Source: a virus. From it: a stretch of DNA of 25,408 nt. The notes below the pieces were generated by a model. The model saw nothing but the letters and a program-made list of their open reading frames with translations. It ran no database searches and was not told where the DNA came from. Below are positions 1 to 25,408 of the stretch, piece by piece. Position numbers and translations under genes: made by a program. The stretch lies in IMG/VR virus record IMGVR_UViG_3300020183_000419, positions 1 through 25,408 of that record; one strand, 5' to 3'. The first letter of the stretch is position 1. Every line of letters begins with the position of its first letter.

Positions 1-118
1 AAACACCTGTAACTTTATATGTTGCACCATCGCTACCGATTATTTCATCACCGACTAAAGTATTTCCAATTTTTTTAGTCCCATAAGGTGTGTAGATAAT
101 TGTCGACTTCAATAGACC
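1..118 (-). other. Intein N-terminal (Hint) segment inside the helicase Walker A motif
   Basis: Helicase residues 172-210 look like intein block A and what follows it: a TPYGTKKI segment, then LVGDEIIGSDG, then YKVTGV. This fits the Hint-fold pattern T(P)xG...I..L.VGD.I.G.DG...V..V. It begins exactly after the P-loop lysine of GLGK, a known kind of intein insertion point in P-loop NTPases, and would leave Thr/Ser of GKT/S as the +1 residue. The first intein residue appears to be Gly rather than Cys, Ser or Thr, as in class 3 inteins, which use a block F cysteine instead. The C-terminal splicing blocks and any homing endonuclease are beyond the left edge and cannot be checked here. Confidence 0.8.
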
Positions 119-631
119 TTTCCCCAATCCCATATCGTCAGCTAAAATAAACTTTTTGTTTCTAACAAGTTTTTCAATAGCCTCTTTTTGATGATCCATC
201 GGTGCCCTGTGATCGTATTTTGAATATTCAATCACAACATTTTTAACTTCATTATCTTTTATAAGTGCTGTTTTTGGAATCCAAAAATCATGTAAAGTTT
301 CACCACTAAATATTTTACCCCAAATGTGATATGATTTATCTTTTTCAACTAATAACTTTTCAACGTATATTTCTGACGGTTCCTTCGTATACATTTTATC
401 TTCCATCATTTTTTTTCCAAAGTATGAATCGAGTTTTACCCATTTTTTTGCAACCTTTGGTGTTCGTCCGTGAAAGTTAATTATGTATTCTGCTTGAGAT
501 CTTGTTGGTGTAAATGATTTACTATTTTGTTTTTTGTGTTTTAATCCTAAGATATAGTTATTTAATCCTACATAATCATCTAACATTTGAAGGGCTCTTG
601 TTTCGAGAGTTTTTGAAATTAATTCTTCCAT
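1..631 (-). CDS. SNF2/UvsW-like DNA helicase, 5' part, interrupted by an intein (runs off left edge)
   Basis: The minus strand is open from an ATG at 631-629 to the window edge (210 codons). The protein starts MEELISKTLETRALQML. At about residues 151-171 it has the helicase N-terminal signature PMDHQKEAIEKL followed by LADDMGLGK, the Walker A motif typical of SNF2-family ATPases, with the P-loop lysine at residue 171. This family unwinds or remodels DNA using ATP; T4 UvsW is a phage example that acts in recombination-dependent replication and repair. After K171 the expected Thr/Ser does not follow. The sequence instead turns into an intein start (see separate entry), so the rest of the helicase core should lie to the left of the window. 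The gene is divergent from the acidic-protein gene at 728 and has a TATTTATA box 5 nt before its ATG. The helicase call is good; the exact subfamily is uncertain because motifs Ia-VI are outside the window. Confidence 0.85.
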   Translation of the reverse strand, partial: MEELISKTLETRALQMLDDYVGLNNYILGLKHKKQNSKSFTPTRSQAEYIINFHGRTPKVAKKWVKLDSYFGKKMMEDKMYTKEPSEIYVEKLLVEKDKSYHIWGKIFSGETLHDFWIPKTALIKDNEVKNVVIEYSKYDHRAPMDHQKEAIEKLVRNKKFILADDMGLGKGLLKSTIIYTPYGTKKIGNTLVGDEIIGSDGATYKVTGV

Positions 632-636
632 TATAT

Positions 637-644
637 TATAAATA
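637..644 (-). promoter_or_regulatory. Candidate phage promoter box for the helicase gene
   Basis: Read on the minus strand this is TATTTATA, ending 5 nt before the helicase ATG at 631. It is the same box, in sense orientation, as found upstream of several plus-strand genes in the window. The promoter role is inferred from this recurrence. Confidence 0.45.
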
Positions 645-690
645 AAAATAGTAAATAATATAAAAAAAACAACTTTTTTTTTTAATGATA

Positions 691-698
691 TATTTATC
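691..698 (+). promoter_or_regulatory. Candidate phage promoter box for the 728 gene
   Basis: TATTTATC lies 29 nt upstream of the ATG at 728, in the divergent intergenic region 632-727. It matches the recurring box at seven of eight positions. The rest of this intergenic region is A/T runs with no other recognisable feature. Confidence 0.4.
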
Positions 699-727
699 AA
701 ATGAATTAAACTTGTAAAAATTAAAAA

Positions 728-1084
728 ATGAAAAGAAAAATAGGACTTTCAGAATCAGATCTTTATAGAATTGTTAACCGTGTCATATATGAACAAGATA
801 AGGACGAAAAGGATATTGAGGATGACGAAGATATTGATTATGATGACGAAGATATTGATGATGAAAACATGTCAAAATATACTGAGGATGAAATAGAAGA
901 TAAACAAGACGAATGTAGTAATTTAATAGATATGTTGGAATCATTAGTCGAAGATTTAAAATCAATGGAAAATAATGAAGACATTTTTGACTTACTTTCA
1001 ATGAAAGTTGGAGAAATAGAAGAGGCCTGTTTATTATTAAATGATTTTGTTGACGGAATAGAATCAAACCCTTTTGGTATTTGA
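728..1084 (+). CDS. Small acidic protein of unknown function with capsid-targeting-like N-terminus
   Basis: This 118-residue protein has three parts. Residues 1-23 (MKRKIGLSESDLYRIVNRVI then YEQ) form a basic amphipathic helix. Residues about 24-62 are a very acidic Asp/Glu tract with an internal repeat of DEDID. Residues about 63-118 are helical and probably coiled coil (LIDMLESLVEDLKSMEN). The N-terminus resembles, in style only, the capsid-targeting peptides of T4 internal and core proteins, which the prohead protease cuts after (L/I)xE; IYE/Q at 21-24 would fit. A related LxESxL motif occurs in the small protein at 6289. The gene has its own upstream box and downstream terminator, so it is probably monocistronic. 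It could be an internal head protein, a scaffold or an unrelated acidic protein; I do not recognise the family. Confidence 0.75.
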   Translation: MKRKIGLSESDLYRIVNRVIYEQDKDEKDIEDDEDIDYDDEDIDDENMSKYTEDEIEDKQDECSNLIDMLESLVEDLKSMENNEDIFDLLSMKVGEIEEACLLLNDFVDGIESNPFGI

Positions 1085-1105
1085 ATAAACAAATAAAAAT
1101 TAAAG

Positions 1106-1128
1106 ACCCACTATATGTGGGTTTTTTT
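1106..1128 (+). terminator. Rho-independent terminator after the acidic-protein gene
   Basis: Stem ACCCAC / GTGGGT with loop TATAT, followed by a run of T. It lies 22 nt after the stop codon at 1084. Confidence 0.85.
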
Positions 1129-1137
1129 GTTTATTGA

Positions 1138-1145
1138 TATTTATT
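1138..1145 (+). promoter_or_regulatory. Candidate phage promoter box ahead of the neck genes
   Basis: TATTTATT sits directly between the preceding terminator and the ATG at 1150, leaving only 4 nt between box and start codon. If it acts as a -10 element, the transcript would be leaderless. Confidence 0.4.
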
Positions 1146-1149
1146 TTAT

Positions 1150-1665
1150 ATGTCACAGAATAAAGTTCCAATTACAAGATTAAATAAGTTTTTTTCTGAA
1201 GAAGACTTCAATTTAGAAATTGAAATGGGTATGGAATGGCAAATGGGTGATATGAATTTCACGGTCGTTTTATATAGGGTTGATAAAGAAAGAACAAATA
1301 ATGATGACGTGTATGGTGAAGCAATGAGTGACGGAATACAATTTTTGGCTCCAATTGAAGTAAAAGGTTTAGTTAAAATTGAGGCACCTGCAAATTCTGA
1401 TTATGGGTCTTCCAAATTATCTCAACTTGAACCTGGTAATATGACATTTAGTGTTTATCAATCACATTTAGATCAATTGGCTATTGAAATATCTTTGGGT
1501 GATTATTTGGCTTATTACGAAACAGAAGATAGGGTAAGGTATTATTCGGTGGTAAATGACGGACGAGTTAATTCAGATATGAAACATACTTATGGTGGTT
1601 ATAAAAAATACTATAGAACAATAATAGCAGCACCTGTAACTAACAACGAATTTAACGGATTATAA
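1150..1665 (+). CDS. Putative neck / head-completion protein (T4 gp14-like position)
   Basis: A 171-residue protein, mostly beta by appearance. Its centre (GDYLAYYETEDRVRYYSVVNDG, residues about 117-138, quoted only as landmark GDYLAYYETED) and its end (APVTNNEF) resemble small neck or head-tail joining proteins of T4-like phages, but I do not recognise a diagnostic motif. The main argument is position: it is immediately followed, after 1 nt, by a gp15-like tail terminator gene and then by the sheath, which is the T4 order 13-14-15-18. The start at 1150 gives MSQNKVPITRLN. The only nearby alternative starts, around residues 26-28, would cut off a well-formed N-terminus. There is no Shine-Dalgarno sequence. 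A minor structural or tail-completion protein is an alternative. Confidence 0.55.
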   Translation: MSQNKVPITRLNKFFSEEDFNLEIEMGMEWQMGDMNFTVVLYRVDKERTNNDDVYGEAMSDGIQFLAPIEVKGLVKIEAPANSDYGSSKLSQLEPGNMTFSVYQSHLDQLAIEISLGDYLAYYETEDRVRYYSVVNDGRVNSDMKHTYGGYKKYYRTIIAAPVTNNEFNGL

Positions 1666-1666
1666 A

Positions 1667-2713
1667 ATGGCATTACCTAAAAAAGTAAAAAAATATTTAC
1701 CATTAATACCTACTAAGGTTGGTAATGAAAGAAGACAACAAATGTTGGATGATATTACCGACAATGGTACTTACTTACCGAAAAGTGTTTTACATGCCGA
1801 CATGGATGGAGGGGTTTTAGATTTTGTTAAAAATAACCTAAAGTTAGTTGTTGACGGTAAAACAGTACCAACAGTTAATAAAATAATAACAACACAAAGT
1901 TGGGCTCAGTTTAATGAAACATGGGAGTTTCAAGATTTAGATAAAAACGTTTCTTTACCGTTTATTATAACAGTTAGAAAACCTGAAGTTAAATATGGTA
2001 AATTAGGCGGGAACAACCTTTTTCAAAATATTCCAGAAAGACTTAGATTTAATTATTTTACCGTTCCCAATTGGGACGGTCAAAGAAAAGGTGCGGATGT
2101 TTATAAAGTACCACAACCAATACCTGTTGATATTGTATATAGTGTTAAGATATTTTGTAATAGAATGCGTGAGATCAATGAGTTCAACAAATTAATTTTA
2201 CAAAATTTCACATCCAAACAAGCTTACATTCAAATTAATGGTCATTATATGCCACTTGTGGTAGCGGACCCATCTGACGACTCACCTAAAGAAATTGAAA
2301 AAAGAAAATACTATATAATGAGTTATGAATTCACCTTGAATGGGTTTCTAATTGATGATAAAGAATTTCAAGTTTCTCCTGCGATTTCGAGACAAGTTTC
2401 CCTTTTTGAGTTTGAGACATCAAAAAAATCAAAGAGAGTTAGAATAGAACCACCGAGACCAAACTCATTCGATTTAGATTTTAATTTTGTTTCAGGAAAT
2501 ACCCAACTAAATGAAGTTTTTAGATATACGGTAGATTTAAATGTGAGTAATACGACCAACATCAGTTCTTATTCTGTTTACATCAATTCAAATTATGTTG
2601 GTGACGATTTAACAAAAATACAAATAACAGACGGAGATACTCTTGTTGTTAATGTTATAAAATTTGATAATACAAAAGCGTCTTTGATAAAAACAAATGC
2701 GGTTTTAGTTTAA
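1667..2713 (+). CDS. Tail terminator / proximal sheath-stabilising protein, gp15-like
   Basis: A 348-residue protein. Residues about 155-200 (VDIVYSVKIFCNRMREINEF, then KQAYIQINGHYMPLVV) resemble the core of T4 gp15-type proteins, which cap the tail tube and sheath and join the tail to the head. T4 gp15 is 272 residues, so this one is longer. The extra C-terminal part, about residues 265-348, reads as a small beta-sandwich domain (SVYINSNYV, ITDGDTLVVNV). The gene follows the neck-like gene by 1 nt, so the two are almost certainly co-transcribed and translationally coupled. Its TAA stop abuts the stop codon of the convergent repressor-like gene. The assignment rests on motif resemblance and gene order. 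Confidence 0.6.
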   Translation: MALPKKVKKYLPLIPTKVGNERRQQMLDDITDNGTYLPKSVLHADMDGGVLDFVKNNLKLVVDGKTVPTVNKIITTQSWAQFNETWEFQDLDKNVSLPFIITVRKPEVKYGKLGGNNLFQNIPERLRFNYFTVPNWDGQRKGADVYKVPQPIPVDIVYSVKIFCNRMREINEFNKLILQNFTSKQAYIQINGHYMPLVVADPSDDSPKEIEKRKYYIMSYEFTLNGFLIDDKEFQVSPAISRQVSLFEFETSKKSKRVRIEPPRPNSFDLDFNFVSGNTQLNEVFRYTVDLNVSNTTNISSYSVYINSNYVGDDLTKIQITDGDTLVVNVIKFDNTKASLIKTNAVLV

Positions 2714-2863
2714 CTACTCTCCGTAAATATCTTTTTCTTTTTTACAAGTCTTAATAATTAATTTTTCTAAAAACTTATAAAGCTTCAAACCATTTTCCTC
2801 ACAATAGTTTTTTAGTAAAGTATGTGTTTCTTCTGAAATCTTTATATTTTTTATTTTTTTCAT
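2714..2863 (-). CDS. Ribbon-helix-helix-like small DNA-binding protein
   Basis: This minus-strand ORF of 49 residues starts MKKIKNIKISEETHTLLKNY and ends KKEKDIYGE. It has the Arc/MetJ/CopG pattern: a short beta strand (KNIKIS), a helix (EETHTLLKNYCEENG) and a second helix (KLYKFLEKLIIK). Such proteins dimerise and use the paired strands to bind operators. An in-frame ATG at 2869 would add two residues, but it overlaps the candidate promoter box, so 2863 is preferred. The gene is convergent with the gp15-like gene (stop codons adjacent) and divergent from the sheath gene at 3000, so it is well placed to repress its own transcription and possibly that of the sheath. The target is inferred. Confidence 0.7.
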   Translation of the reverse strand: MKKIKNIKISEETHTLLKNYCEENGLKLYKFLEKLIIKTCKKEKDIYGE

Positions 2864-2866
2864 ATT

Positions 2867-2874
2867 CATAAATA
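2867..2874 (-). promoter_or_regulatory. Candidate promoter box for the repressor-like gene
   Basis: On the minus strand this reads TATTTATG, ending 3 nt before the ATG at 2863. It is another sense-oriented copy of the recurring box. Confidence 0.4.
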
Positions 2875-2881
2875 TTTTAAT

Positions 2882-2900
2882 AGGTAGAAAAAAGGTAGAA
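2882..2900. repeat. Short direct repeat, possible operator
   Basis: AGGTAGAA occurs at 2882-2889 and again at 2893-2900, an 11-bp period, i.e. one helical turn. The pair lies just upstream of the repressor-like gene and between it and the sheath promoter box. Ribbon-helix-helix dimers often bind such tandem sites, but binding is only inferred here. Confidence 0.35.
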
Positions 2901-2960
2901 TTTTTTCATACTATTAAAAAATGATGGACTTTTTTATATGTTTTTTGCTTTTTTTGATTG

Positions 2961-2968
2961 TATTTATA
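2961..2968 (+). promoter_or_regulatory. Candidate phage promoter box for the sheath gene
   Basis: TATTTATA, ending 31 nt before the sheath ATG at 3000. The same spacing is seen for the tail tube gene. High expression would be expected for both. Confidence 0.5.
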
Positions 2969-2999
2969 TATAAAATAAATCTTTAATTAAACTATAAAA

Positions 3000-5900
3000 A
3001 TGGCATCTTCTACAAAAGTATTCGTTTCTGCAGGGGTCTATACCTCAGAAAGGGACTTAACTTTCGTTGCACAAAGTGTTGGTGTAACTACTTTAGGCTT
3101 AGTTGGTGAGACTTTACAAGGGCCAGCCTTCGAACCTATTTTCATAACAAATTTTGATGAGTTTCAAGTTTATTTTGGGGGAACAAGTCCTGAAAAATTT
3201 GTAAACACACAAATTCCAAAATATGAATTGGCTTATATTTCGAATTCATATTTACAACAATCAAATCAACTTTTTGTAACAAGGGTATTAGGTTTATCGG
3301 GTTACGATGCAGGACCATCTTGGTCTATTGTAACTGCAGGTAATGTTGACCCTTCTACTGTATCAGTAACAGGTACATCAGGACCTAGTTACGTATTTTT
3401 TACAGGTACAACTGGTAATAGTACTAATGTTACTATAACATCTATTTCTTCATTACCTTCAAATTTACAAAATGATTTTTACAATTCTTATACAACATTT
3501 AATGGAGGAACATCAAGTATAAGTGATGACTTTAAAGATTATATTTCAGATCAAATAGGTCTTTATTCTACATCATCTGCATTATCAGGTAAGACTTCTT
3601 ATTTTTGGGGAGCGGTTAGTTCGTCGACAATTAATTCAGTAACAGGTTCACCTTTTAATACCACAGCAACTACTGAAACTTTTGGGGTAAGCTCAATTAA
3701 TCAAGCTAATATTGATTTTTCATCAACAATTAATGATCCTTGGTTTTATGCAACCTTCGATTATTACCAAGGCACTAATGACATTAATGGTTATATAGGT
3801 TACGGTTTTGGTTCTTCTTTGGACTCAATTTCAGCAATCTCTGCTTCAGTTTATTCTGGTTCTATGGCCGTTTATGTTACAAACTATTCAGGTTCACCAT
3901 ATACTGAATACGATGATTTAATTGTTGCGACTTTAAGATCAAGAGGTATTACCAATTTTTCGAGCACACAACACGGTCCTTTATTTCAAGTTTCAGGAAC
4001 ATCTGACGTAACAATTGATTGTTCAGGAAATTATTCAGGAGTTACTAAAAACCCTTATGAAACGTTTGTTATTTCTGGTATAACAAAAGACAACGAAACA
4101 TTTAGTTTTGAAACTTCATTAGGTACCACCGACACACAATACATTTCAAAAGTATTTGGTAGAAGTAATTTTGGTAAAGATAGAACTGAAGTGCCTTTAT
4201 TTGTTGAAGAAGTTTATTCAAGTTTATTACAAACAGGTTATAGAGATGGTAAAATTAGAGGACTTTATTGTGATTTAGTAAGTTTACCAGGAGTAACTGA
4301 TGAAACTAATTTTGCTTATTATGATTCTTTAGGATTTTATTTAGAACAATATCAAACACCTGAAACACCTTATATGGTTTCAGAATTAAGAGGTAATAAA
4401 GTTTATAAATTATTTAAATTTAAACTTATCTCTGATGGTAATGCAGCCAACAGACTTGTTAAAATGTCAATTGGTAACATTTCATTTGCTAATGGTACAT
4501 TTGATGTCTTCATTAGAGATTTTTATGACAATGACCAAAATGTAAGAGTAGTTGAAAGTTTCACTAACTGTTCAATGGATCCTAATCAAAACAACTATGT
4601 TGCTAACAAAATTGGTACATCTAATGGTGAGTACCAAGTTAAATCGAAATATGTAATGTTGGAAATGAGCGACGAGGCACCAACAGATGCGTTACCATGT
4701 GGATTTGAGGGATATATCTCAAGAGAATACGCAAACGCAACACCACCATTTGTTGTATATAAAACAAGATATTTACAACCAGGTGACGTTATCTATAATC
4801 CTCCTTTTGGTTCATCATCAGGTGGAGACAATCAAGTAATCTCAAGTGGTGAAAACCCAAGAAAGGCTTATTTAGGTATTTCTAATATTGCTGGTATTGA
4901 TTATGACTTTTTTGAATATAAAGGAAAACAATTACCTGTAAATTTAGGTACTGACACTACAGGCCCATCTTGGGGTTACAGAACTAAAGGTTTCCATATG
5001 GATAGTGGTGCTACGGTTGTAACTATGGTTGTAAATTCTGCAACAACACAAGCGTTTGAAGTAGGTACAGGTAATTTTAGAAGTGAGCCTCAGGATACTG
5101 ATAACCCTTATTACAGATTAAATACTCGTAAATTCACAGTATTAGCTTATGGTGGATTTGACGGATGGGATATTTACAGAGAATATAGAACAAACGGAGA
5201 CGCGTTCGCTCTTGGTCAATCAGGATTTAAAAAAGGAGCGGCACCTTCAGTTACTTATCCAACGTCTACAGGATGGGGAGCGTTCAAACAAATTTCAGGA
5301 CCTAACCAAGAGACTTGGGCAAATACTGATTACTACGCTTATAAATGGGGACAATCAAGTTTTGCTAATCCAGAGTCAGTTAATATTAATGTATTTGCAA
5401 CACCGGGTATTGATTATTACTACAACTCAAATTTAGTTGAAGATGCTATTGATATGGTTGAAACAGATAGAGCGGATTCAATTTATATCTGTACAACACC
5501 TGACTTTAATTTACTTTTACCGTCTTACAATGATATTGAAGAAGGTTTGGTATATCCACAAGAAATTGTCGATAGGCTAGAAGATACAGGAATTGATTCA
5601 AACTACACCGCCACTTACTATCCATGGGTATTAACAAGAGATACTGTAAACAATACACAAATCTATATACCACCAACTGCGGAAGTAACTAAAAACTTAG
5701 CGTTAACCGACAATATTGCGTTTCCTTGGTTCGCATCTGCAGGTTATACAAGAGGTTTGGTAAGTGCAATTAGAGCACGTAAAAAATTAACTCAAGAAGA
5801 TAGAGATACTTTATATAAAGGTAGAGTAAACCCAATTGCTACTTTTTCTGATGTAGGTACTGTAATATGGGGTAATAAAACTTTACAAGTTAAAGAATCG

Positions 5901-6218
5901 GCACTTGATAGAATCAACGTAAGAAGATTACTTCTACAAGCAAGAAAATTAATTTCAGCAGTGGCAGTAAGATTACTATTCGAACAAAATGATGATAAAG
6001 TAAGACAAGACTTCTTAGATTCAGTTAACCCAATCTTGGATTCAATTAGAAGAGATAGAGGTTTAATTGACTTTAGAGTTACAGTTTCTAACACACCTGA
6101 AGATTTGGATTCAAATACCTTAACAGGTAAAATTTACTTGAAACCGACAAGAGCGTTAGAGTTCATTGACATTGAGTTTGTAATTACTCCGACAGGGGCT
6201 TCTTTTGATGACGTATAA
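3000..6218 (+). CDS. Tail sheath protein, gp18-like, greatly enlarged
   Basis: At 1072 residues this is far longer than T4 gp18 (659). The N-terminus has the sheath hallmark: an extended start (VFVSAGVYTSERDLT, residues 7-21) that makes the inter-subunit linkage, then GLVGETLQGPAFEP and a tight fold to about residue 105. The C-terminus is also typical: FPWFASAGYTRG (about 904-915), then LDRINVRRLLLQARKLI (about 968-984) and the terminal strands NTLTGKIYLKPTRALEFIDI. Sheath subunits form the contractile outer tube that drives the inner tube into the cell. The middle, especially residues about 110-430, is Ser/Thr/Gly-rich and looks like inserted surface beta domains. The gene stands alone between its own promoter box and terminator. 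The assignment is strong. Confidence 0.9.
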   Translation: MASSTKVFVSAGVYTSERDLTFVAQSVGVTTLGLVGETLQGPAFEPIFITNFDEFQVYFGGTSPEKFVNTQIPKYELAYISNSYLQQSNQLFVTRVLGLSGYDAGPSWSIVTAGNVDPSTVSVTGTSGPSYVFFTGTTGNSTNVTITSISSLPSNLQNDFYNSYTTFNGGTSSISDDFKDYISDQIGLYSTSSALSGKTSYFWGAVSSSTINSVTGSPFNTTATTETFGVSSINQANIDFSSTINDPWFYATFDYYQGTNDINGYIGYGFGSSLDSISAISASVYSGSMAVYVTNYSGSPYTEYDDLIVATLRSRGITNFSSTQHGPLFQVSGTSDVTIDCSGNYSGVTKNPYETFVISGITKDNETFSFETSLGTTDTQYISKVFGRSNFGKDRTEVPLFVEEVYSSLLQTGYRDGKIRGLYCDLVSLPGVTDETNFAYYDSLGFYLEQYQTPETPYMVSELRGNKVYKLFKFKLISDGNAANRLVKMSIGNISFANGTFDVFIRDFYDNDQNVRVVESFTNCSMDPNQNNYVANKIGTSNGEYQVKSKYVMLEMSDEAPTDALPCGFEGYISREYANATPPFVVYKTRYLQPGDVIYNPPFGSSSGGDNQVISSGENPRKAYLGISNIAGIDYDFFEYKGKQLPVNLGTDTTGPSWGYRTKGFHMDSGATVVTMVVNSATTQAFEVGTGNFRSEPQDTDNPYYRLNTRKFTVLAYGGFDGWDIYREYRTNGDAFALGQSGFKKGAAPSVTYPTSTGWGAFKQISGPNQETWANTDYYAYKWGQSSFANPESVNINVFATPGIDYYYNSNLVEDAIDMVETDRADSIYICTTPDFNLLLPSYNDIEEGLVYPQEIVDRLEDTGIDSNYTATYYPWVLTRDTVNNTQIYIPPTAEVTKNLALTDNIAFPWFASAGYTRGLVSAIRARKKLTQEDRDTLYKGRVNPIATFSDVGTVIWGNKTLQVKESALDRINVRRLLLQARKLISAVAVRLLFEQNDDKVRQDFLDSVNPILDSIRRDRGLIDFRVTVSNTPEDLDSNTLTGKIYLKPTRALEFIDIEFVITPTGASFDDV

Positions 6219-6239
6219 TTAAAATACAAAAAATAAAAC

Positions 6240-6265
6240 AATGGGGAGTAGAAATATTCCCCATT
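6240..6265 (+). terminator. Terminator hairpin after the sheath gene
   Basis: Stem AATGGGGA / TCCCCATT with a 10-nt loop, then TTGTATATTT. It lies 21 nt after the sheath stop. The T-tract is imperfect, so termination may be partial. An in-frame ATG at 6241 falls inside the stem and is unlikely to be used as a start. Confidence 0.65.
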
Positions 6266-6269
6266 TGTA

Positions 6270-6277
6270 TATTTATA
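6270..6277 (+). promoter_or_regulatory. Candidate phage promoter box for the 6289 gene
   Basis: TATTTATA is followed 11 nt later by the ATG at 6289. The downstream sequence AAAAAAGTTATG is identical to that after the box at 23754. Confidence 0.5.
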
Positions 6278-6288
6278 AGAAAAAAGTT

Positions 6289-6429
6289 ATGAAAATCGAA
6301 AAAAAACTTATTAAAGAAAGTATAGGATCAAATAAAATTGAACCTAAAACATATTCAGGTAAAAAACAAAATATCGTATTAACTGAAAGCCAATTAGAAA
6401 AGTTATTATTTGCAATCAATAAAAAATGA
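6289..6429 (+). CDS. Small basic protein of unknown function
   Basis: Starting at the ATG at 6289, this is a 46-residue, lysine-rich protein (MKIEKKLIKESIGSN ... INKK). The frame is open further upstream to an ATG at 6241, but that ATG lies inside the sheath terminator hairpin and upstream of the promoter box, so 6289 is chosen. The C-terminal half has NIVLTESQLEKLLFAI, whose LxESxLxxLL pattern echoes LSESDLYRIV at the N-terminus of the acidic protein at 728. The stop TGA overlaps the next ATG as ATGA, implying translational coupling with the HAD gene. No function can be assigned. Confidence 0.6.
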   Translation: MKIEKKLIKESIGSNKIEPKTYSGKKQNIVLTESQLEKLLFAINKK

Positions 6430-7325
6430 AGTATACAAAATACATATACGATTACGTAAATAAAAAAAGATTAGTCGAAGGTATTACTGAAGAAGGGAGA
6501 CCCGATTTAAAATACTATGCTTTTGATTGGGATGATAATATTGTTTTTATGCCAACAAAAATTATTTTAATGAGTGAAAACGAAGAAGAAGTTCCGATGT
6601 CAACAGAGGAGTTTGCTGAACACAGACATGAGATTGGGGTACAACCTTTTAGTTTTAAAGGGACAACAATTGTTGGTTATGCACCAAACCCATTTAGAAA
6701 TTTTAGAACAGAAGGTGATAAAAATTTTATTATTGACTCAATGATGGCAAGTCCCGGTCCTTCATGGAATGATTTTGTGGAATGTATTAATGGTGGGTCA
6801 ATTTTTGCTATTATTACAGCTAGAGGACACAATCCTGAAACTTTAAAAGAATCTTGTTTAAATTATATATTATCAAATCATAATGGTATTAATTCAAAAA
6901 CTTTGGTTGAAAATTTAAAAAAATATAGAAATCTAAATACTCAAGACATTTATGAAAATGTAAGAGAATTAGAATATCAAGATAAAGATTTAATAAACGA
7001 ATATTTAGATCTATGTAAGTTCCACCCCGTATCTTTTGGTGAAGGGAGTGCTGCGAACCCTGAAGAAGGTAAAATTAAAGCGATGAGAGAATTTATATCT
7101 TATTGTAGAGAAATGGCTTCGGAGGTTTCAAGAATGACAGGAGACTCGTCTAAGGCCATATTTAAAAATGATATTGCAAATGATGAGGTGATTCCTTTTA
7201 TTGGTTTTTCAGATGATGATGCAAAAAATATTGAAGCAATGAAAGGATTTTTAGAAAAAGAATATCCAGAAGAAAAACCAGTAAGAGTGTATTTAACTAA
7301 AGGAGGAGAAAAAGAAGAGATATAA
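6426..7325 (+). CDS. HAD-superfamily phosphatase/hydrolase encoded in the tail module
   Basis: A 299-residue protein with all four HAD motifs in order. Motif I is FDWDDNI, with nucleophile Asp34 and acid/base Asp36. Motif II is FAIITARGHN with Thr131. The motif III lysine is at about residue 216 or 218 (EEGKIKAM). Motif IV is GFSDDDAKN with Asp263-265. HAD enzymes hydrolyse phosphate esters through an aspartyl-phosphate; the substrate cannot be told from sequence. DxDxN is a variant of the commoner DxDGT/V. The stretch between motifs I and II (about 42-125) and the helical stretch about 140-205 would hold cap domains. The gene overlaps the small 6289 gene by 4 nt and lies between sheath and tube genes, an unusual place for an enzyme. 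Nucleotide or nucleic-acid-end processing is possible, as is a role in assembly, but neither is shown. Confidence 0.85.
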   Translation: MKYTKYIYDYVNKKRLVEGITEEGRPDLKYYAFDWDDNIVFMPTKIILMSENEEEVPMSTEEFAEHRHEIGVQPFSFKGTTIVGYAPNPFRNFRTEGDKNFIIDSMMASPGPSWNDFVECINGGSIFAIITARGHNPETLKESCLNYILSNHNGINSKTLVENLKKYRNLNTQDIYENVRELEYQDKDLINEYLDLCKFHPVSFGEGSAANPEEGKIKAMREFISYCREMASEVSRMTGDSSKAIFKNDIANDEVIPFIGFSDDDAKNIEAMKGFLEKEYPEEKPVRVYLTKGGEKEEI

Positions 7326-7430: not shown

Positions 7431-7919
7431 ATGGCTGATTTATTAATGAAAATGCCCTTTCAGTATGAACCTAAAAAGTCAAATAGGTTTATATTGAGTT
7501 TCCCTTCATCTTTGGGGATCAATTCTTGGTATGTTGAAAAAGCATCAAGACCTAATATTAAAATTGATACAAAGGAAATAAAATTTTTGAATACTGAAAC
7601 ATATGTCGCAGGTTCATTTAAATGGGAATCAATTTCAGTTACTTTAAGAGACCCAATTGGTCCTTCAGCCGCTCAAGCTGTTATGGAGTGGGTTCGTTTA
7701 CACGCAGAATCAGTAACGGGACGTATGGGTTACGCTGCTGGGTATAAAAAAGACGTTGACCTTGAAATGTTAGACCCAACAGGAGTTGTTGTTGAAAAAT
7801 GGATTTTACAAGGATGTAGTTTAACTGACGCTAAATTTAATGAGGTTAATTACACCAACTCAGATATTATGAAAGTTGATATGACATTACAACCTGACAG
7901 ATGTATATTAGTTTACTAA
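7431..7919 (+). CDS. Tail tube protein, gp19-like
   Basis: At 162 residues this matches the usual size of T4 gp19 (163). The fold pattern fits a tube subunit: an N-terminal segment with the KSNRFILSF strand (residues 16-24), a SWYVEKASRPNI strand and loop, FKWESISVTLRDPIGPS (about 63-79) and the closing strands (SDIMKVDMTLQPDRCILVY, about 144-162). Tube subunits stack as hexameric rings to make the DNA channel inside the sheath. The gene stands alone between a promoter box and a strong terminator, as expected for a highly expressed structural protein. The assignment is firm from size, pattern and location. Confidence 0.85.
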   Translation: MADLLMKMPFQYEPKKSNRFILSFPSSLGINSWYVEKASRPNIKIDTKEIKFLNTETYVAGSFKWESISVTLRDPIGPSAAQAVMEWVRLHAESVTGRMGYAAGYKKDVDLEMLDPTGVVVEKWILQGCSLTDAKFNEVNYTNSDIMKVDMTLQPDRCILVY

Positions 7920-8017: not shown

Positions 8018-8770
8018 ATGGATAACGCAATTGAATACGGACAACAACAATTTAATTTACCTCATGATGTGGTGAAATTACCATCAAAAGGTATTTTTTA
8101 TACCCCTAAAAAAGAATCATTAAAGGTTGGTTATTTAACCGCCGCTGACGAAAACATTTTAATGTCACAAAATAATAACAAAGAAGGTTTGATTAAAACT
8201 TTATTAAGAAATAAAATTTATGAACCAGGGTTTGATATTAACCAAATGATTAATGTTGATATACAAGCCATACTTATCTTTTTAAGAAACACTGCTTTTG
8301 GTCCTGAATATAATTTTATTGTAAAAGACCCAAAAACATCCATAGAATTTGAAACCACTGTATTAATAGATGAGTTGAATTACATTGAATCTAAAGTTAA
8401 ACCAGATGAAGACGGTCTTTATACTTTATTATTACCAAAAACACAAAAAACAGTTAGATTAAAACTTTTAAATATAGGAGAAGAAACGGAAATTGAAAGT
8501 TTATCAGATAAATACCCAAAAGGTATGGTTGCACCTATTGTTACAAAAAGATTAGAAAAACAAATAGTTGAACTTGAGGGTAATAGAGATAAAGGTGTAA
8601 TAGCCACATTTGTAAATCAAATGCCAATAATGGATTCAAAAGAAATTAAAAATTTTCTATTATTGTGCGAACCAAAAATTGATTTAAATAAAAAAATTAT
8701 AGCCCCGTCTGGAGAAGAAGTCACTGTAATGGTGAACTTTGGGGTTGAATTTTTTCGGCCTTTCTTCTAA
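8018..8770 (+). CDS. T4 gp26-like baseplate / tail assembly chaperone
   Basis: A 250-residue protein whose N-terminal half fits the T4 baseplate gp26/gp51-type family: VVKLPSKGIFYTP (residues 18-30), then LTAADENILMSQ (41-52), then IQAILIFLRNTAFGPEYNF (about 87-105). In T4 these proteins are needed for hub/baseplate assembly and are absent from the finished tail. The location, after the tube gene and before the tape measure, is exactly where tail assembly chaperones lie in other tailed phages. Such chaperones are often made in two forms by frameshifting. The ORF ends VEFFRPFF at TAA 8768-8770, and the next reading frame continues into the 40-codon ORF at 8787. No exact TATTTAT box precedes it; the leader is A/T-rich with AAATAAAAATAATT just before the ATG. 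Confidence 0.7.
   Translation: MDNAIEYGQQQFNLPHDVVKLPSKGIFYTPKKESLKVGYLTAADENILMSQNNNKEGLIKTLLRNKIYEPGFDINQMINVDIQAILIFLRNTAFGPEYNFIVKDPKTSIEFETTVLIDELNYIESKVKPDEDGLYTLLLPKTQKTVRLKLLNIGEETEIESLSDKYPKGMVAPIVTKRLEKQIVELEGNRDKGVIATFVNQMPIMDSKEIKNFLLLCEPKIDLNKKIIAPSGEEVTVMVNFGVEFFRPFF
8750..8758 (+). other. Candidate +1 ribosomal frameshift site
   Basis: The zero frame reads TTT TTT CGG. A Phe-tRNA on the second TTT can slip +1 onto TTC while the ribosome waits at CGG, a codon expected to be rare in so AT-rich a genome. The +1 frame is open from 8736 through the ORF ending at 8909, passing its ATG, so a shift would give a protein of about 296 residues. This is a prediction from sequence and gene position. 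Confidence 0.4.
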
Positions 8771-10902: not shown

Positions 10903-13900
10903 ATGGAAAGCCCATTATCATTCAATTCGTCAGAAAACTTTAGAAAGAAATTACTTCTTAGAAACCTTAGACCATATGGTGTTGAGGGTTCTTATCAAGG
11001 AAATGACTCTAAAAAAAACACAGAAGTTTCAATTATTGATTATTCAGTAATTGATTCACCACCTATTGAGGTTGAGGCTAACATACAAGAACCAAAATTA
11101 ATAGGGTTAAATAAATATACACCATTAGATTCTGATTTTGGTAATATAGTTAATATAAATAAAAATTTAGGAACACAAACTAATTTTGGTAATTATACAT
11201 TTACCCAGAGTTTTGGGTCTCAATTAGAAATTTTTGGTAAAAGAACAGAAAAAGAACAATTAGTAAAAAATCAGTATTCTAAAGATGTCGGTGAAAATCA
11301 AAACACAGTAAACCCAAATTTAAATAAACAAACAAAAGCTAACGAAGGTAACTACGGATATCAAGATAGTGTTAATAGCGACTTAGAAAAAAAAGGAAAT
11401 GAACTTGAAAAGTTTTTAAGGGTTTTAAACAAATACGGACCAACTAAGATGGCTAATGGTTTTGGAGATACGGTAACATTTGACTTAGAATCTATTGGCA
11501 CAAGAGTAGGTGAATATACATACGTATCGAATGGACCTGAAATTTCGGCAGAACAATCTAGAACTAATGCTTACACTTCAAATTTCTTTGGACCAAGTGG
11601 TGGTTTTGGGTTCGAAGTTGAGCCAAATGTAAACAAACAAACAAAACCTAACTCTGGACCTTTCTTATACCCAACTTCAGAACCAAATAGAACAACAGAA
11701 AGATCTCAAAAAATGGCGTATCTTTCAAATGTTTATGGACCTGAGGATATACCAAACGGATATGGGGTTTTTATTGACCCAAATTTGAATTTCCAAACAA
11801 GATCAAATCAAGGAGAATTTGATTATGAGTCATCTTCACCAAATTTAACAACATTACAGTCACAAACATTTTTTTATGGAAAAAATAAATATAATAGTGG
11901 TGAAGGAACATTTGATGCTTTAACTGTTGAAGATTATTCTTTTGAAAATTTAAATGACCCTTACTATAATAGTGACACAACATTTATTTTTATTCCATCT
12001 GATTATAGCCCAATAAATATTTTATCACAAGATGATTTAAATAATGTTAGAGGGTCTGAAGGTTCATTGAGTCAAGATTCTGATTTGGCAAAATTAGGGG
12101 CAAAACAATTACAAAAAGAATTTAAGGCAAGAGTTGCTTTTGAATTATTACAACAAACTTTGGGTAAAACATTAGGGACAACTACCACTGTAAATCAAAA
12201 TAGTGGTGCAATATCGGCCGAATTGAAACCTGACCCATTTGATGCGTTGGGTGTTATTACTAATAATATACCATTGATACAAAGGGATTTTAAAATAACA
12301 TCTGTTGGTGGTATTATTGGTGAAGCACTTAGCTTCACATCTAGATTAGCAGGACTTTATTCCCCATATTCTTTGATACCAGGTGAATATTTTGATTACC
12401 CACAAAAAAATATTTTGTCTCAAGCGTTAACAAACCCAATAGGAGGGTTAGCGTCACTTGCAACTAATTTAGCAACGAAAATATTAACACCAAATATAGA
12501 TACAGGATCTGAAACATTATTGGCAAATACATCAAACGCAACAAAAAGTTTATTGTTCGATATGTTATATTATAATGAATATAGACCACAGTACAAACTT
12601 AGTTCCGTTCTCAGTCCAAACTTAACGGCACCTGGTGGTAATTTTTATATTGGTAAAGGTAAAAACTACATGAGGGATTTAGTGAGTCCGAAAACGGATT
12701 TACCAAGAGATAACAAAGGTAACCCTGTTGTTGGCCCTGTTTATAGTTATGGTAGAATAGGAAAAGACTATGAAGGTAATTCAGTAAACCAAAAATTATT
12801 TGGATTAAACGCGAGAGCTTTTTATGACAAAGTAGGGATACAAGGTGGTTTTACATGGACAGCTAAAAAGAATTATATTGATCCAGGAAGATTAGTTGGA
12901 CCTAAAAATGAAAAGACAGGTAAGTTACAAAACTTTTCAATTGATAGTGTTTTTGGTGCTGGATTTCAAGCAACATATAATCAAACAAAATCTTCAGATA
13001 CAAAACTCACACCGGGATCGATTTTAGACGTAACACAAAGATTGGTTGAGGCGGGTAGCGTTGGTTCAGCAAGTAAACTTGAACATGTTGGAAATGCAAT
13101 TAATCAAGTATCTAAAGTATTTTTTGATGGATATCAAGAAGTTACTAAAGGATCAAGAGCAAGAAGATTTTTAACACCTACATCATTAGGACAAAGTGGA
13201 AAGCAAGTTAAAGATGTAGTTGGTTATGAATATTGTAGATTATTCACTAAAGATAGACCTTACTATTCGTTTAATGAATTACAAAAAACTGACAGAAATA
13301 TAAGAAAATATAACAGTTCAGTTTTAGATAATACATATAATTTAAATATCGCCCCGATGGGTGGAGTTGACTCAACAAACATACAATTTATTGATGGTAA
13401 ATTGAGGGCAAAAAAATATATGTTTTCTTTAGAAAATTTAGCATGGAAAACATCAAGTAGAGTTGGTTATAGAGTCGAGGATTTACCTGCATGCGAAATA
13501 GGACCTAATGGTGGAAGGATAATGTGGTTTCCTCCTTATGATCTTACGTTTGATGACTCGTCTACTGCGAATTGGACAGATACCGCGTTTCTTGGTAGAA
13601 CAGAGCCTGTTTATACCTACACAAAAACATCAAGAAAAGGTAATATTAGTTTTAAAATTGTAGTGGATCACCCGTCCGTTTTAAATGTTTTAGTTAATAA
13701 AGAATTAGAAAAAACTGAAGAGTCTTTGGCAACAAAAGTAATTGACTCTTTATTTGCTGGATGTTTAAAATATGATTTAGTAGATCTACTAAAAAAATAC
13801 CCCATGTTCAGTTATTCTGACATATATGAAGTTGTTGAAACTTTAAGAACAGTAGAACAAGTTAGAGAGTTCACTAAGTACACATCACCAACACAAACAA

Positions 13901-16731
13901 ATGGAGAAAATAATACAAAAGAAAACGCTCAATTAGAGAGTAATGAAGAAAGTACAGGAAGTGAAACTAAAGAAATTATTGACGAGTTAAACAGTAAAGA
14001 AAAGGATAATAAGTTTGAAGAACTTATATTACTTTTCCCACAAGCAATACCTGATGGTGACACGTCAGAAAGTGATAGTATTTATGAAACTTACTTTAAT
14101 GATTTAATAGGTAGAAGTGACGAATATATTAAAAGTGTAACCTATGGGGGTGTTTCTGATGGGTATTATATCGAATATTCTAAAAAAACAAATCAAAAAA
14201 CCACTTTACCGGATAACCCACCGATTAAAGAATTGGCAGATAAATGGATTATCGCTAAACCATCAGTAACCCAAACAATATTAGATGAACTAAATCAAGA
14301 ATATCAAGACTTTAAAGAATTTTTAGAAAAAGTTTTAAAAGTATTAAAAAGTGGTGCTGAAGTTAATTTTTCACTTATTGCTTCCGCAAATGCGAATGGT
14401 GGAGAAGAGTATAATCAAAAACTATCTGAAAGAAGAATTGATTCAGTATATAAAGAAATTTTACAATTTGGTGATGGAGAAAAAACTTTATCTGATTTTA
14501 TTGATAATAAATTAAAAATCAAAAAAAAATCAGAGGGAAAAAAATCTAAATTAAAAACTGATAAATACTCATCTATTGATTGTTCTAAAGGATTCAAAAG
14601 CTCAAGTACGGATGGTAAAGGTTCTATGCAAGCGATGCTATGTAGAAGAGTTAGTGTTAGTGAAATTAAAATAAAACCTAACGAAGAAAAACCAAAAACA
14701 CAAACAGAAGAAGAAAAAAGAAAGAACAACGAAGGACAATTACCACAAACAAATGCTGCTGAAAACAATAATACTAATAACACACAAGCACAAGCAACAA
14801 CAGTAAAAGAAATTTCACAAACAACTGTAAAAGATAAGACAAATAAATTAAGAGGAGATTTAACAAAAAGACTACTGAGAAAACTTTTAACTGAGTGTAA
14901 TTACTTTGAAATGGTAAAAGAAACTAATCCGATGATTTATGATGGAATTAAAAGTAAAATTAAAAACTTCCAACCGGCATTTCACTCAATAACTCCTGAA
15001 GGATTAAATGCTAGATTAACGTTTTTAAATCAATGCGTAAGACCTGGAGATACAATCCCAACTGCGGTAGAAACAGGAGGAGAAACACAATTCCAATATA
15101 ACGATGTATTTAATAGTGCTTTTGGTACACCACCGATTTTAGTATTGAGAGTTGGGGACTTTTATCATACAAAAATAATTCCAATGTCGTTAACGTTTAA
15201 ATATGAAGATGCTAAGTTTGATATAAACCCTGAAGGTATTGGGTTACAGCCTATGATTGCAACGGTAAGTCTTTCATTTGATTTTATCGGTGGACAAGGA
15301 ATTAATAATCCGGTATCTGAATTACAAAACGCATTATCGTTTAATTATTACGCAAATACCGAAATGTATGATGATAGAGCAACAATAACTGAAGATGTAT
15401 TATCTGAATTTGATTCTGAAGTTTTAGATATTATTAAAAATGAAGTTGGTTTGATTGATGCGACCGATAAACCACAAGGTAGTGGTGCGGGTAATACTAT
15501 AGGTAATGTAAAAACAAATAATCTAGACATACAGACAAGTGCAATTACCGGAACAATTGAATATAAAACTAAAATGAACGAGTTCGTTCAAACGACTGGC
15601 TCATATTTTAATTCACTATTTTTCAATTTAAACATATTAAAAGACTATTTGAATTTAGGTGGATTGTTACTATATACTAAATCTAGAAAATATAAAGAAG
15701 GTTATTTTGATTATTTAAGTGGAACGTCAAATAGTTTAATTACTAATATTTTAGGAAAACCGGAAAACTATCAAGATAGGGTTGACGATTTAGTAAGAAG
15801 AGCAAAAAAAGATGTAAACGAGCTATTAACACCACCATTGGCTCAAGTTTTAGAAAAGAATTTTACGAACGATCAAATACGAAAAGTAAAAAGAAAATTA
15901 AAGTCCATGATTGATGATAAAAAACAACCATACATTGATTTTTTAGAAAGTGCTCAAACAAATATAATTACAGAAGAATTAAAATTTATTAATATTTCAG
16001 ACCAAGTAAATTACGTAATCAATAAAAGAGACGGTTATGTAACAAAAAAGGGTTCAGTAATAATTTATGATTTGTCTGGTAAAACTGAAGGGGTTGAAGC
16101 ATCTAGTGATTCACCGAACACATATGAAGAACTGAAAAAAGATTTTATCAAAATTGGTACAGATTTAAATGACTTTATGAAAAAATTAGATGAGTTTGGG
16201 ATCGTTCCAACAGGAGAAACTTTTACATATAAAGACGATTTCACAACTCAACTATATTTGAAAGAAGATTTACAAGAACAGGTGCCACCAGCGACAAACG
16301 TATTTTTTATGTTATTTGGTACACAAATAATAGAAAACCCAGACACTTTTGTTAATGAATTAGCAAAGGCCGCGGTTAATAACAATGTTTCAAATTTTCA
16401 CTATACCGCTTGGAAAGACTTTATATATAATAATTTAGGATTTACAAAAAATAATGACACGTATGTGGAAAAAACAAATGGAGGTTTAGTTAAAGATTTT
16501 AAGAGATCTAAAGATAGGTTAAAAAATAAATTTGATGATTTTAAAAATGATTTCTTGAATGATTTACTTCCTAACGACATATATAAACCATTCACCGACA
16601 AAAAAGAAAGAGTTTTAGATTACTCTAAACAACTAACATCTAATGATACTGATGTAAAAAATCTAAAAAATGTTTGGTCAACCGTTGATTCAAATGACGA
16701 TAAATATAATTTGAAGAAAAAAATGAATTGA
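10903..16731 (+). CDS. Very large baseplate/tail-tube-initiator-like protein with OmpA-like domain
   Basis: A 1942-residue multidomain protein. Residues about 70-330 hold roughly five degenerate units of about 50 residues (NKYGP ... NLNKQT ... N.G.Y.Y). Residues about 875-935 contain FLGRTEPVYTYTKTSRKG and ISFKIVVDHPSVLNVL; a further beta domain at about 1405-1475 has PPILVLRVGDFYHTKIIPMS and NPEGIGLQPMIATVSLSF. Both look like the LysM-associated or tube-initiator folds of contractile baseplates. Between them, about 1055-1255, lies an OmpA-like domain: ASANANGGEEYNQKLSERR (about 1157-1175) and a closing CRRVSVSEIKI. OmpA-like domains bind peptidoglycan. A low-complexity Asn/Thr/Gln/Lys linker follows (about 1260-1315). 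The protein opens the baseplate operon, 4 nt before the gp53-like gene. A baseplate role is well supported; equivalence to a single T4 protein is not. Confidence 0.65.
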   Translation: MESPLSFNSSENFRKKLLLRNLRPYGVEGSYQGNDSKKNTEVSIIDYSVIDSPPIEVEANIQEPKLIGLNKYTPLDSDFGNIVNINKNLGTQTNFGNYTFTQSFGSQLEIFGKRTEKEQLVKNQYSKDVGENQNTVNPNLNKQTKANEGNYGYQDSVNSDLEKKGNELEKFLRVLNKYGPTKMANGFGDTVTFDLESIGTRVGEYTYVSNGPEISAEQSRTNAYTSNFFGPSGGFGFEVEPNVNKQTKPNSGPFLYPTSEPNRTTERSQKMAYLSNVYGPEDIPNGYGVFIDPNLNFQTRSNQGEFDYESSSPNLTTLQSQTFFYGKNKYNSGEGTFDALTVEDYSFENLNDPYYNSDTTFIFIPSDYSPINILSQDDLNNVRGSEGSLSQDSDLAKLGAKQLQKEFKARVAFELLQQTLGKTLGTTTTVNQNSGAISAELKPDPFDALGVITNNIPLIQRDFKITSVGGIIGEALSFTSRLAGLYSPYSLIPGEYFDYPQKNILSQALTNPIGGLASLATNLATKILTPNIDTGSETLLANTSNATKSLLFDMLYYNEYRPQYKLSSVLSPNLTAPGGNFYIGKGKNYMRDLVSPKTDLPRDNKGNPVVGPVYSYGRIGKDYEGNSVNQKLFGLNARAFYDKVGIQGGFTWTAKKNYIDPGRLVGPKNEKTGKLQNFSIDSVFGAGFQATYNQTKSSDTKLTPGSILDVTQRLVEAGSVGSASKLEHVGNAINQVSKVFFDGYQEVTKGSRARRFLTPTSLGQSGKQVKDVVGYEYCRLFTKDRPYYSFNELQKTDRNIRKYNSSVLDNTYNLNIAPMGGVDSTNIQFIDGKLRAKKYMFSLENLAWKTSSRVGYRVEDLPACEIGPNGGRIMWFPPYDLTFDDSSTANWTDTAFLGRTEPVYTYTKTSRKGNISFKIVVDHPSVLNVLVNKELEKTEESLATKVIDSLFAGCLKYDLVDLLKKYPMFSYSDIYEVVETLRTVEQVREFTKYTSPTQTNGENNTKENAQLESNEESTGSETKEIIDELNSKEKDNKFEELILLFPQAIPDGDTSESDSIYETYFNDLIGRSDEYIKSVTYGGVSDGYYIEYSKKTNQKTTLPDNPPIKELADKWIIAKPSVTQTILDELNQEYQDFKEFLEKVLKVLKSGAEVNFSLIASANANGGEEYNQKLSERRIDSVYKEILQFGDGEKTLSDFIDNKLKIKKKSEGKKSKLKTDKYSSIDCSKGFKSSSTDGKGSMQAMLCRRVSVSEIKIKPNEEKPKTQTEEEKRKNNEGQLPQTNAAENNNTNNTQAQATTVKEISQTTVKDKTNKLRGDLTKRLLRKLLTECNYFEMVKETNPMIYDGIKSKIKNFQPAFHSITPEGLNARLTFLNQCVRPGDTIPTAVETGGETQFQYNDVFNSAFGTPPILVLRVGDFYHTKIIPMSLTFKYEDAKFDINPEGIGLQPMIATVSLSFDFIGGQGINNPVSELQNALSFNYYANTEMYDDRATITEDVLSEFDSEVLDIIKNEVGLIDATDKPQGSGAGNTIGNVKTNNLDIQTSAITGTIEYKTKMNEFVQTTGSYFNSLFFNLNILKDYLNLGGLLLYTKSRKYKEGYFDYLSGTSNSLITNILGKPENYQDRVDDLVRRAKKDVNELLTPPLAQVLEKNFTNDQIRKVKRKLKSMIDDKKQPYIDFLESAQTNIITEELKFINISDQVNYVINKRDGYVTKKGSVIIYDLSGKTEGVEASSDSPNTYEELKKDFIKIGTDLNDFMKKLDEFGIVPTGETFTYKDDFTTQLYLKEDLQEQVPPATNVFFMLFGTQIIENPDTFVNELAKAAVNNNVSNFHYTAWKDFIYNNLGFTKNNDTYVEKTNGGLVKDFKRSKDRLKNKFDDFKNDFLNDLLPNDIYKPFTDKKERVLDYSKQLTSNDTDVKNLKNVWSTVDSNDDKYNLKKKMN
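11110..11883 (+). repeat. Degenerate ~50-residue tandem repeats in the large baseplate protein
   Basis: Five units begin at residue 70 with NKYTP, NQYSK, NKYGP, NFFGP and NVYGP, with a sixth partial unit at residue 328 (NKYNS). Shared positions include an N(I/L)NxQT-like strand, NxGxYxY and an SQxxAY-type helix start. The units are divergent in DNA, so the duplication is old. Confidence 0.55.
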
Positions 16732-16735
16732 TATT

Positions 16736-17053
16736 ATGGATTTTTATAGAAGATATGAAAAATTTTTAATTAATGGTACACAGACTGTAGTACCATATGT
16801 TAATATTGGGTCAAGGCCGTCTGATCAAAAATATGTCTACAGAGCAGGTCAAAGTAGGTTAGATAAAATTAGTTATGAAAAATACGGTAGCCCCTATTTT
16901 GGTTGGTTAATACAATTAGCAAACCCAATTTACGGTGGTTTAGAATCTAATATACCTGATGGAACCATAATTATTATACCTTTTCCACTTATAGGTGCGT
17001 TACAAGACTACAAAAATGCAATAGATACACATATTTTTTATTATGGCAGATAG
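16736..17053 (+). CDS. Baseplate wedge protein, gp53/gpX-like LysM-type
   Basis: A 105-residue protein with the LysM-like pattern YVYRAGQSRLDKISYEKYG (residues 31-49), GWLIQLANPIYGG (about 54-66), then IPDGTIIIIPFPL. This is the arrangement of the tail protein X / T4 gp53 family: a bound to start at a low-processivity motif, then a WLI..ANP helix, then an IPDGT..IP strand. In T4, gp53 joins wedges around the hub and carries a LysM-like domain. This protein is shorter than T4 gp53 (196) and is essentially the LysM-like part alone. The gene begins 4 nt after the upstream stop and its last 11 nt overlap the start of the next gene, so the three genes are probably translationally coupled. Confidence 0.75.
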   Translation: MDFYRRYEKFLINGTQTVVPYVNIGSRPSDQKYVYRAGQSRLDKISYEKYGSPYFGWLIQLANPIYGGLESNIPDGTIIIIPFPLIGALQDYKNAIDTHIFYYGR

Positions 17054-24788: not shown

Positions 24789-25408
24789 ATGGCAAATTCA
24801 ATTGACGCAGTACTAGCACAGTACGAAAAGAATTCACAACCAAGTGGTTCACAGAGACAAAACATCTCACAAGAAGACAGAATGAAAAAGTATTTTTCAG
24901 CAATTCTTCAAAAAAATGAAAAATCAGCACAAAAAAGAATTAGAGTGTTACCTACAAAAGATGGTTCTTCACCATTTGTTGAGGTTTGGTATCATGAGAT
25001 TCAAGTTAATGGGCAATGGGTTAAGTTGTACGACCCTGAAAAAAATGACAACGAAAGATCCCCTTTAACAGAAGTTTATAATGAACTTATTTCAACAGGT
25101 AAAAAAGAAGATAAAGAATTGGCTTCACAATACCGTTCACGTTTATTTTACATCGTAAAGGTTATTGATAGAAATAACGAACAAGATGGTGTTAAATTTT
25201 GGAGATTCAAACACAATTACAAACAAGAAGGTGTGTTAGATAAAATTCTCCCTATTTGGAAAGCAAAAGGTGACGTAACTGATTCAGAAAAAGGTAGAGA
25301 CCTTATTATTGAACTTATTAAAGCAAAAACACCACAAGGTAAAGAGTATACAGTTGTTCAAACAATTATGTATGACGATCCAGCACCATTACACACAGAT
25401 AAAGAAAT
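24789..25408 (+). CDS. Single-stranded DNA-binding protein, gp32-like (truncated by window edge)
   Basis: The ATG at 24789 opens a frame of 206 codons that runs off the right edge. The N-terminus (MANSIDAVLAQYEKNSQ) is polar and would correspond to the cooperativity arm. From about residue 50, KRIRVLPTKDGSSPFVEVWY, then QVNGQWVKLYDP, then SRLFYIVKVIDR (about 118-129), then VKFWRFKHNYKQEGVLDKI follow the order of the T4 gp32 core: FLPS, the hydrophobic strand, the insertion, and VVKD..KVF.YRFG..IWDKI. gp32 coats single-stranded DNA and organises replication and recombination. The Cys/His zinc ligands of T4 gp32, between the KLYDP and SRLFY segments, have no counterpart: no cysteine is present there. 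The gene is preceded by a host-type promoter and a 5' leader of about 40 nt without a Shine-Dalgarno sequence. Confidence 0.8.
   Translation, partial: MANSIDAVLAQYEKNSQPSGSQRQNISQEDRMKKYFSAILQKNEKSAQKRIRVLPTKDGSSPFVEVWYHEIQVNGQWVKLYDPEKNDNERSPLTEVYNELISTGKKEDKELASQYRSRLFYIVKVIDRNNEQDGVKFWRFKHNYKQEGVLDKILPIWKAKGDVTDSEKGRDLIIELIKAKTPQGKEYTVVQTIMYDDPAPLHTDKE

What the first reader, a model, noticed from the sequence alone, without database searches (positions are those of the whole stretch)
1..250. Intein inserted in the Walker A lysine-threonine step of a phage SNF2-like helicase
The minus-strand protein reads LADDMGLGK and then, instead of T/S, changes to TPYGTKKI ... LVGDEIIGSDG ... YKVTGV, an intein N-terminal block. 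Insertion at the most conserved point of an essential ATPase is typical of inteins, but one in a Bacteroidota-type T4-like phage helicase would be worth recording.
Basis: partly seen in the sequence, partly recalled or inferred. Interest (0 to 1): 0.75.

Follow-up and report, generated by a model that had tools for sequence, protein, structure and literature searches.

The report
Class 3 intein in phage helicase
A freshwater phage's DNA helicase gene carries a self-removing protein insert (an intein with its own homing endonuclease) exactly in its ATP-binding loop; this is a clear new example of a kind already known from other phages, of the unusual type that starts splicing with an internal cysteine.

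Summary
Window 631-119 (minus strand) encodes the first 171 residues of an SNF2 helicase ending ...LADDMGLGK. From base 118 to the edge it encodes the first 39 residues of an intein. The window is the whole public record, but L002 is 99.97% identical to its left 6,631 bases and continues the gene. That gene is 954 aa: a 587-aa helicase interrupted between the Walker A Lys and Thr by 367 extra residues ending VTHN|T. Close relatives lack the insert precisely (GK|TTSTII).
Residue 1 is Gly, so the ordinary (class 1) first step is impossible. The full-length homologues have Trp66, Cys347 and Thr365 (the WCT triplet), His64, His366, Asn367 and +1 Thr in every case, while position 1 is F, G, A, C, L, M or S. 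This is a class 3 intein. A LAGLIDADG endonuclease with conserved acidic residues lies inside it. The intein moves between helicases: one pair is 98% identical in the intein and 74-76% outside.
Class 3 inteins in phage P-loops, and in a bacterial Snf2 protein, are already published, so this is a new member of a known kind. Two further sites of the same helicase family (motifs II and VI) carry other inteins.

The parts
119..631 (-). N-extein: first 171 aa of the SNF2-like helicase, ending at Walker A ...ADDMGLGK
   Evidence: full-length relative L002 hits Pfam SNF2-rel_dom 1.9e-28 and Helicase_C 2.5e-18; intein-free relative L004 hits phrog_62 DNA helicase 6e-113
1..118 (-). first 39 residues (of about 367) of the class 3 intein, block A region; cut by the record's end
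   Evidence: 118/118 bases identical to L002, where the intein is complete
116..118 (-). intein residue 1, Gly (no Cys/Ser/Thr nucleophile)
   Evidence: sequence; Gly also in L002, L003, L008, L029, L048
119..121 (-). Walker A lysine codon, last N-extein residue; the Thr that should follow is the +1 residue after the intein in L002

Best explanation
A mobile class 3 intein with a LAGLIDADG homing endonuclease sits between the P-loop Lys and Thr of an SNF2-type phage helicase. Inferred splicing path, by homology to studied class 3 inteins: the block F Cys (Cys347 in L002) attacks the Lys-Gly1 bond; the N-extein passes to the helicase's own Walker A Thr (+1); Asn367 cyclises with help from His366 and releases the intein; the ester shifts to a peptide bond. 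The helicase is restored as GK-TTSTII. Until then its ATP site is broken. The endonuclease presumably cuts intein-free helicase genes at the same site so that repair copies the intein in. Shown here: exact insertion, WCT and other splicing residues, HINT + LAGLIDADG fold (predicted), conserved endonuclease acids, horizontal movement. Inferred: splicing activity, cleavage activity, order of steps.
For: Precise insertion against empty alleles. Of 52 distinct full inteins, all have H64, W66, C347, T365, H366, N367 while position 1 is F17 G12 A10 C9 L2 M1 S1. The same C-terminal blocks appear in all 78 unfiltered loci that reach that end, and the same invariants in the 23-row alignment, chosen by spread along the hit list. 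The WCT definition (B:12, F:4, G:5) and the missing nucleophile at position 1 match PMC3196547, PMC7664689 and PMC5050341; the block B Thr (TxxH) is also missing, as PMC6195587 says is usual for class 3. Fold: pLDDT 89; the HINT+HEN intein PI-SceI has Z 25.6, and the best splicing-domain-only matches are class 3 DnaB inteins 6bs8 (Z 20.6, 1.4 A over 123) and 6rix. LAGLIDADG_3 2.6e-6, above the cut-off; acids D156, D238, D240 invariant. Mobility: L101/L102 intein 98.3% DNA against 74-76% in the exteins; fourfold sites 96% identical against 41-47%.
Against: The window holds only 39 intein residues; the WCT triplet and endonuclease are read from L002, not from the window. No splicing or cleavage was measured. 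Ten of the 52 homologues have Cys or Ser at position 1, so the missing nucleophile is not universal in the family (it is missing here).
Confidence: 0.95

Rival explanations
1. An ordinary class 1 intein whose Cys1 was lost by mutation (TGT to GGT), so a dead intein that cannot splice.
For: Residue 1 is Gly, one base from Cys; some homologues have Cys1.
Against: Gly1 is kept in L002, L003, L008, L029 and the more distant L048. Position 1 is F, G, A, C, L, M or S across the family while WCT, His, Asn and +1 Thr never change. A dead intein would leave the P-loop broken in many lineages.
Confidence: 0.03
2. A trans-splicing or split gene, or an assembly chimera that joins a helicase to an unrelated intein.
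For: Several contigs (window, L003, L008, L029) end just inside the intein.
Against: L002 and L048 carry the whole 954-aa reading frame on one contig, as do dozens of other loci. The contig ends look like assembly breaks where intein alleles in one sample share sequence (inference).
Confidence: 0.01
3. Splices by class 3 chemistry but no longer homes (inactive endonuclease), being inherited vertically.
For: No cleavage was tested; many close helicases are empty.
Against: Catalytic acids invariant in 52 of 52; intein far more alike than the exteins in many pairs, also at silent sites.
Confidence: 0.1

Closest known systems
Class 3 inteins of mycobacteriophages (TerL1 group) and mycobacterial DnaB-b (PMC5050341, PMC6195587)
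   Same: WCT triplet, no needed nucleophile at position 1; PMC6195587 puts DnaBi1 in the P-loop, and PMC5050341 describes the TerL1-a insertion between P-loop Lys and Thr as 'classic'; phage spread
   Different: Here the host protein is an SNF2 helicase of uncultured T4-like phages; DnaBi1 lacks the endonuclease; position 1 is highly variable here
Deinococcus radiodurans Snf2 class 3 intein (named in PMC3196547; splicing shown, per PMC11219805)
   Same: Class 3 intein in an Snf2-family protein
   Different: Bacterial host; its sequence and exact insertion site were not compared here
Intein-bearing SNF2 gene of Pseudomonas phage PhiPA3 (gp233) and other GenBank phage ATPases
   Same: 33-37% identical inteins, mostly after a P-loop-type GK, with a block F Cys and THN|T ends
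   Different: Exteins only remotely similar (20% for PhiPA3); the gene records read here do not name an intein
PI-SceI and other LAGLIDADG inteins (1ef0, 1lws)
   Same: Whole-length fold, HINT with inserted LAGLIDADG endonuclease, Z about 25
   Different: Class 1 chemistry, other host protein, 18% identity

Membership tests
Intein | In-frame insert whose removal restores a conserved host protein | tested here: met
   L002 954 aa against L004 587 aa; GK|TTSTII restored exactly
Intein | HINT fold with blocks A, B, F, G, C-terminal Asn and C/S/T at +1 | tested here: met
   VTHN|T in all 78 loci that reach the end; HINT matches Z about 20
Intein | Protein splicing activity | not testable with these tools
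   needs expression
Class 3 intein | WCT triplet: Trp B:12, Cys F:4, Thr G:5 | tested here: met
   W66, C347, T365 invariant in 52/52 and 23/23; definition from PMC3196547; seen in homologues including L002, not in the window's own 39 residues
Class 3 intein | No N-terminal nucleophile required at position 1 | tested here: met
   Gly1 in the window; F, G, A, C, L, M, S among homologues
Class 3 intein | Block F Cys forms the first branched intermediate | not testable with these tools
   biochemistry
Class 1 intein | Cys, Ser or Thr at position 1 | tested here: not met
   Gly1
LAGLIDADG homing endonuclease | Two LAGLIDADG helices with acidic residues | tested here: met
   GLGLGDGS and LQGLMDTDG with D156, D238 and D240 invariant; PF14528 28.0 bits against cut-off 22.5
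SNF2-family helicase (extein) | SNF2 N-terminal domain plus Helicase_C | tested here: met
   PF00176 1.9e-28, PF00271 2.5e-18 in L002

The most novel reading that the evidence does not exclude
In this one insertion site the intein's first residue has changed many times (at least 17 changes among F, G, A, C, L, M, S on the tree), apparently together with a short exchangeable N-terminal stretch, and some members hold both Cys1 and the full WCT triplet. Such members might use either the class 1 or the class 3 first step, and would be candidate intermediates for how class 3 arose.
Probability: 0.08. Interest if true: 0.55.

Novelty: new member of a known kind. Interest (0 to 1): 0.33.

Why it matters
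It adds a large, recently mobile family of class 3 inteins outside mycobacteria and their phages, at one fixed site with many alleles. [quoted passage not shown] It also gives protein engineers many new internally initiated inteins.

Tried and rejected
Reading left of the window: impossible, the record ends there; relatives were used instead. Helicase N-extein query against GenBank phages: no match, because it is too diverged; the whole helicase does match at about 30%. Genome-contig scan for the intein: only two distant bacterial hits (28-29%), so no close bacterial copy was found with these patterns. A dead class 1 intein was considered and rejected (position 1 varies, WCT fixed). Paper searches turned up no description of this intein in this phage group, but the library holds only open papers and the key ones (Tori and Perler 2011, Brace 2010) were not held. 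The PhiPA3 extein is only remotely like this helicase.

Full report
Observation. The minus strand of the window encodes MEELISKTLETRALQ...NKKFILADDMGLGK and then GLLKSTIIYTPYGTKKIGNTLVGDEIIGSDGATYKVTGV, open to the edge. Helicase codons run from 631 to 119 and intein codons from 118 to 1. The window is the complete IMG/VR record, so its own left continuation cannot be read.

Completing the gene. A search of IMG/VR with the 171-aa N-extein gave 80 relatives. L002 is 99.97% identical to window bases 1-6631 and runs on past the edge. Its gene is 954 aa. Comparing residues 172-538 (367 aa) with the uninterrupted relative L004 (587 aa) shows that the rest of the protein is collinear, with DDMGLGK directly followed by TTSTIISALETG in the empty allele. 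L048 (helicase about 84% identical in DNA) has the same arrangement; L003, L008 and L029 show the same N-junction before their contigs end. The extein is an SNF2 helicase (Pfam SNF2-rel_dom 1.9e-28 and Helicase_C 2.5e-18 in L002; phrog_62 6e-113 in L004).

Which kind of intein. A second IMG/VR search with the intein found 146 relatives; the best 80 were kept, and wherever the flank is present the insertion is between the same Lys and Thr. In 52 distinct full-length inteins position 1 is F 17, G 12, A 10, C 9, L 2, M 1, S 1, while His64, Trp66, Cys347, Thr365, His366 and Asn367 never vary. That extraction used a pattern containing the block F and G residues, so it is partly circular for those; the unfiltered table shows the same C-terminal ends in all 78 loci that reach them, and a 23-row alignment chosen by spread, not by motif, gives the same invariants. 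Trp66 was not in the pattern. The block B Thr of the usual TxxH is not conserved. [quoted passage not shown] PMC7664689; PMC5050341); [quoted passage not shown] All sequence features are met by L002. The window itself holds only the first 39 residues, including Gly1.

Fold. The AlphaFold2 model of the L002 intein (pLDDT 89, pTM 0.87) matches PI-SceI over its whole length (Z 25.6, 331 residues). Among splicing-domain-only structures the closest are the class 3 DnaB inteins 6bs8 (Z 20.6, 1.4 A, 123 residues) and 6rix/6riy (Z about 20). The profile also hits class 3 DnaB inteins and gp41-1 by sequence. The central part matches LAGLIDADG_3 above the cut-off, with invariant acids in GLGDG and MDTDG. 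The endonuclease is therefore probably active; this was not tested.

Mobility. Between L101 and L102 the intein DNA is 98.3% identical and the helicase on either side 74% and 76%; fourfold sites agree at 96% in the intein and 41-47% in the exteins, so protein-level constraint does not explain the difference. Many other pairs go the same way. The reverse also occurs: in L083/L099 and L115/L117 the helicases are alike (83-98% aa) but the inteins differ strongly in the first 25-50 codons and in a stretch between the two LAGLIDADG motifs, a mosaic pattern. A tree of the inteins without the N-terminal columns needs 17 changes of the position-1 residue; it is a quick tree with several open forks, so the number is approximate.

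How common. In a capped scan for ADDMGxGK in viral contigs, 109 of 119 reading frames with a readable next residue had T or S next and 10 had another residue followed by intein-type sequence. These include unrelated helicases, so this is a rough frequency.

Relation to the known. GenBank phages hold many more distant relatives (33-37% identity): PhiPA3 gp233 SNF2 helicase, a Parabacteroides phage, Proteus phage 10 and others, mostly directly after a P-loop GK and ending THN|T, with the block F Cys. PMC5050341 describes the Lys|Thr P-loop insertion as 'classic' and reports class 3 inteins in mycobacteriophages, including terminases; PMC3196547 names the D. radiodurans Snf2 class 3 intein and proposes a phage origin for class 3. 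The finding is thus a new member of a known kind. New details are the phage group, the free variation of position 1 at a single site, and the strong transfer signal.

Other inteins in the same helicase. L046, L052 and L054 (and L119, L120 together with the motif I intein) have a Cys1 intein in motif II (DE|C...SN|CH). L154, L155 and L156 have a Cys1 intein in motif VI (EDR|C...HN|CYRIGQ) besides the motif I one.

Limits. Splicing, cleavage and the host were not tested. The tail sheath is only distantly like Microcystis and Flavobacterium phage sheaths, so 'Bacteroidota-type' is unproven. 'Freshwater' in the plain sentence is an inference from my own knowledge of the sample series, not a tool result.

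Noticed in passing
L052:6001-8862, L054, L046; L119 and L120: A different intein (366 aa in L052, Cys1, class 1-like, no LAGLIDADG hit) interrupts motif II of the same helicase (LIADE|CFSYDT...ILVSN|CHVVSN); L119 and L120 carry both this and the motif I intein.
   Followed up: partly
L154, L155, L156, C-extein: A third site: a Cys1 intein (362 aa in L154, weak LAGLIDADG) splits motif VI (EDR|CVFGG...NVHN|CYRIGQK), together with the motif I intein in the same gene.
   Followed up: partly
L083/L099, L115/L117, L082/L083: Mosaic inteins: first 25-50 codons and (in the first two pairs) a stretch between the two LAGLIDADG motifs diverge while the rest is nearly identical, suggesting recombination between intein alleles.
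   Followed up: partly
window base 1; ends of L003, L008, L029; starts of L085, L091: Several contigs from different samples end or start inside the intein (L003 at the same base as the window), probably assembly breaks at shared intein sequence.
   Followed up: no
window 3000-6218, 7431-7919, 8018-8770, 17043-23735, 24789-25406: T4-like structural and replication genes: long tail sheath (1072 aa), tail tube, baseplate hub, 2230-aa tail-fibre-like protein, single-strand DNA binding protein.
   Followed up: partly
window 10903-16731: 1942-aa reading frame without a PHROG match; only a sub-threshold OmpA hit (E 0.011).
   Followed up: no
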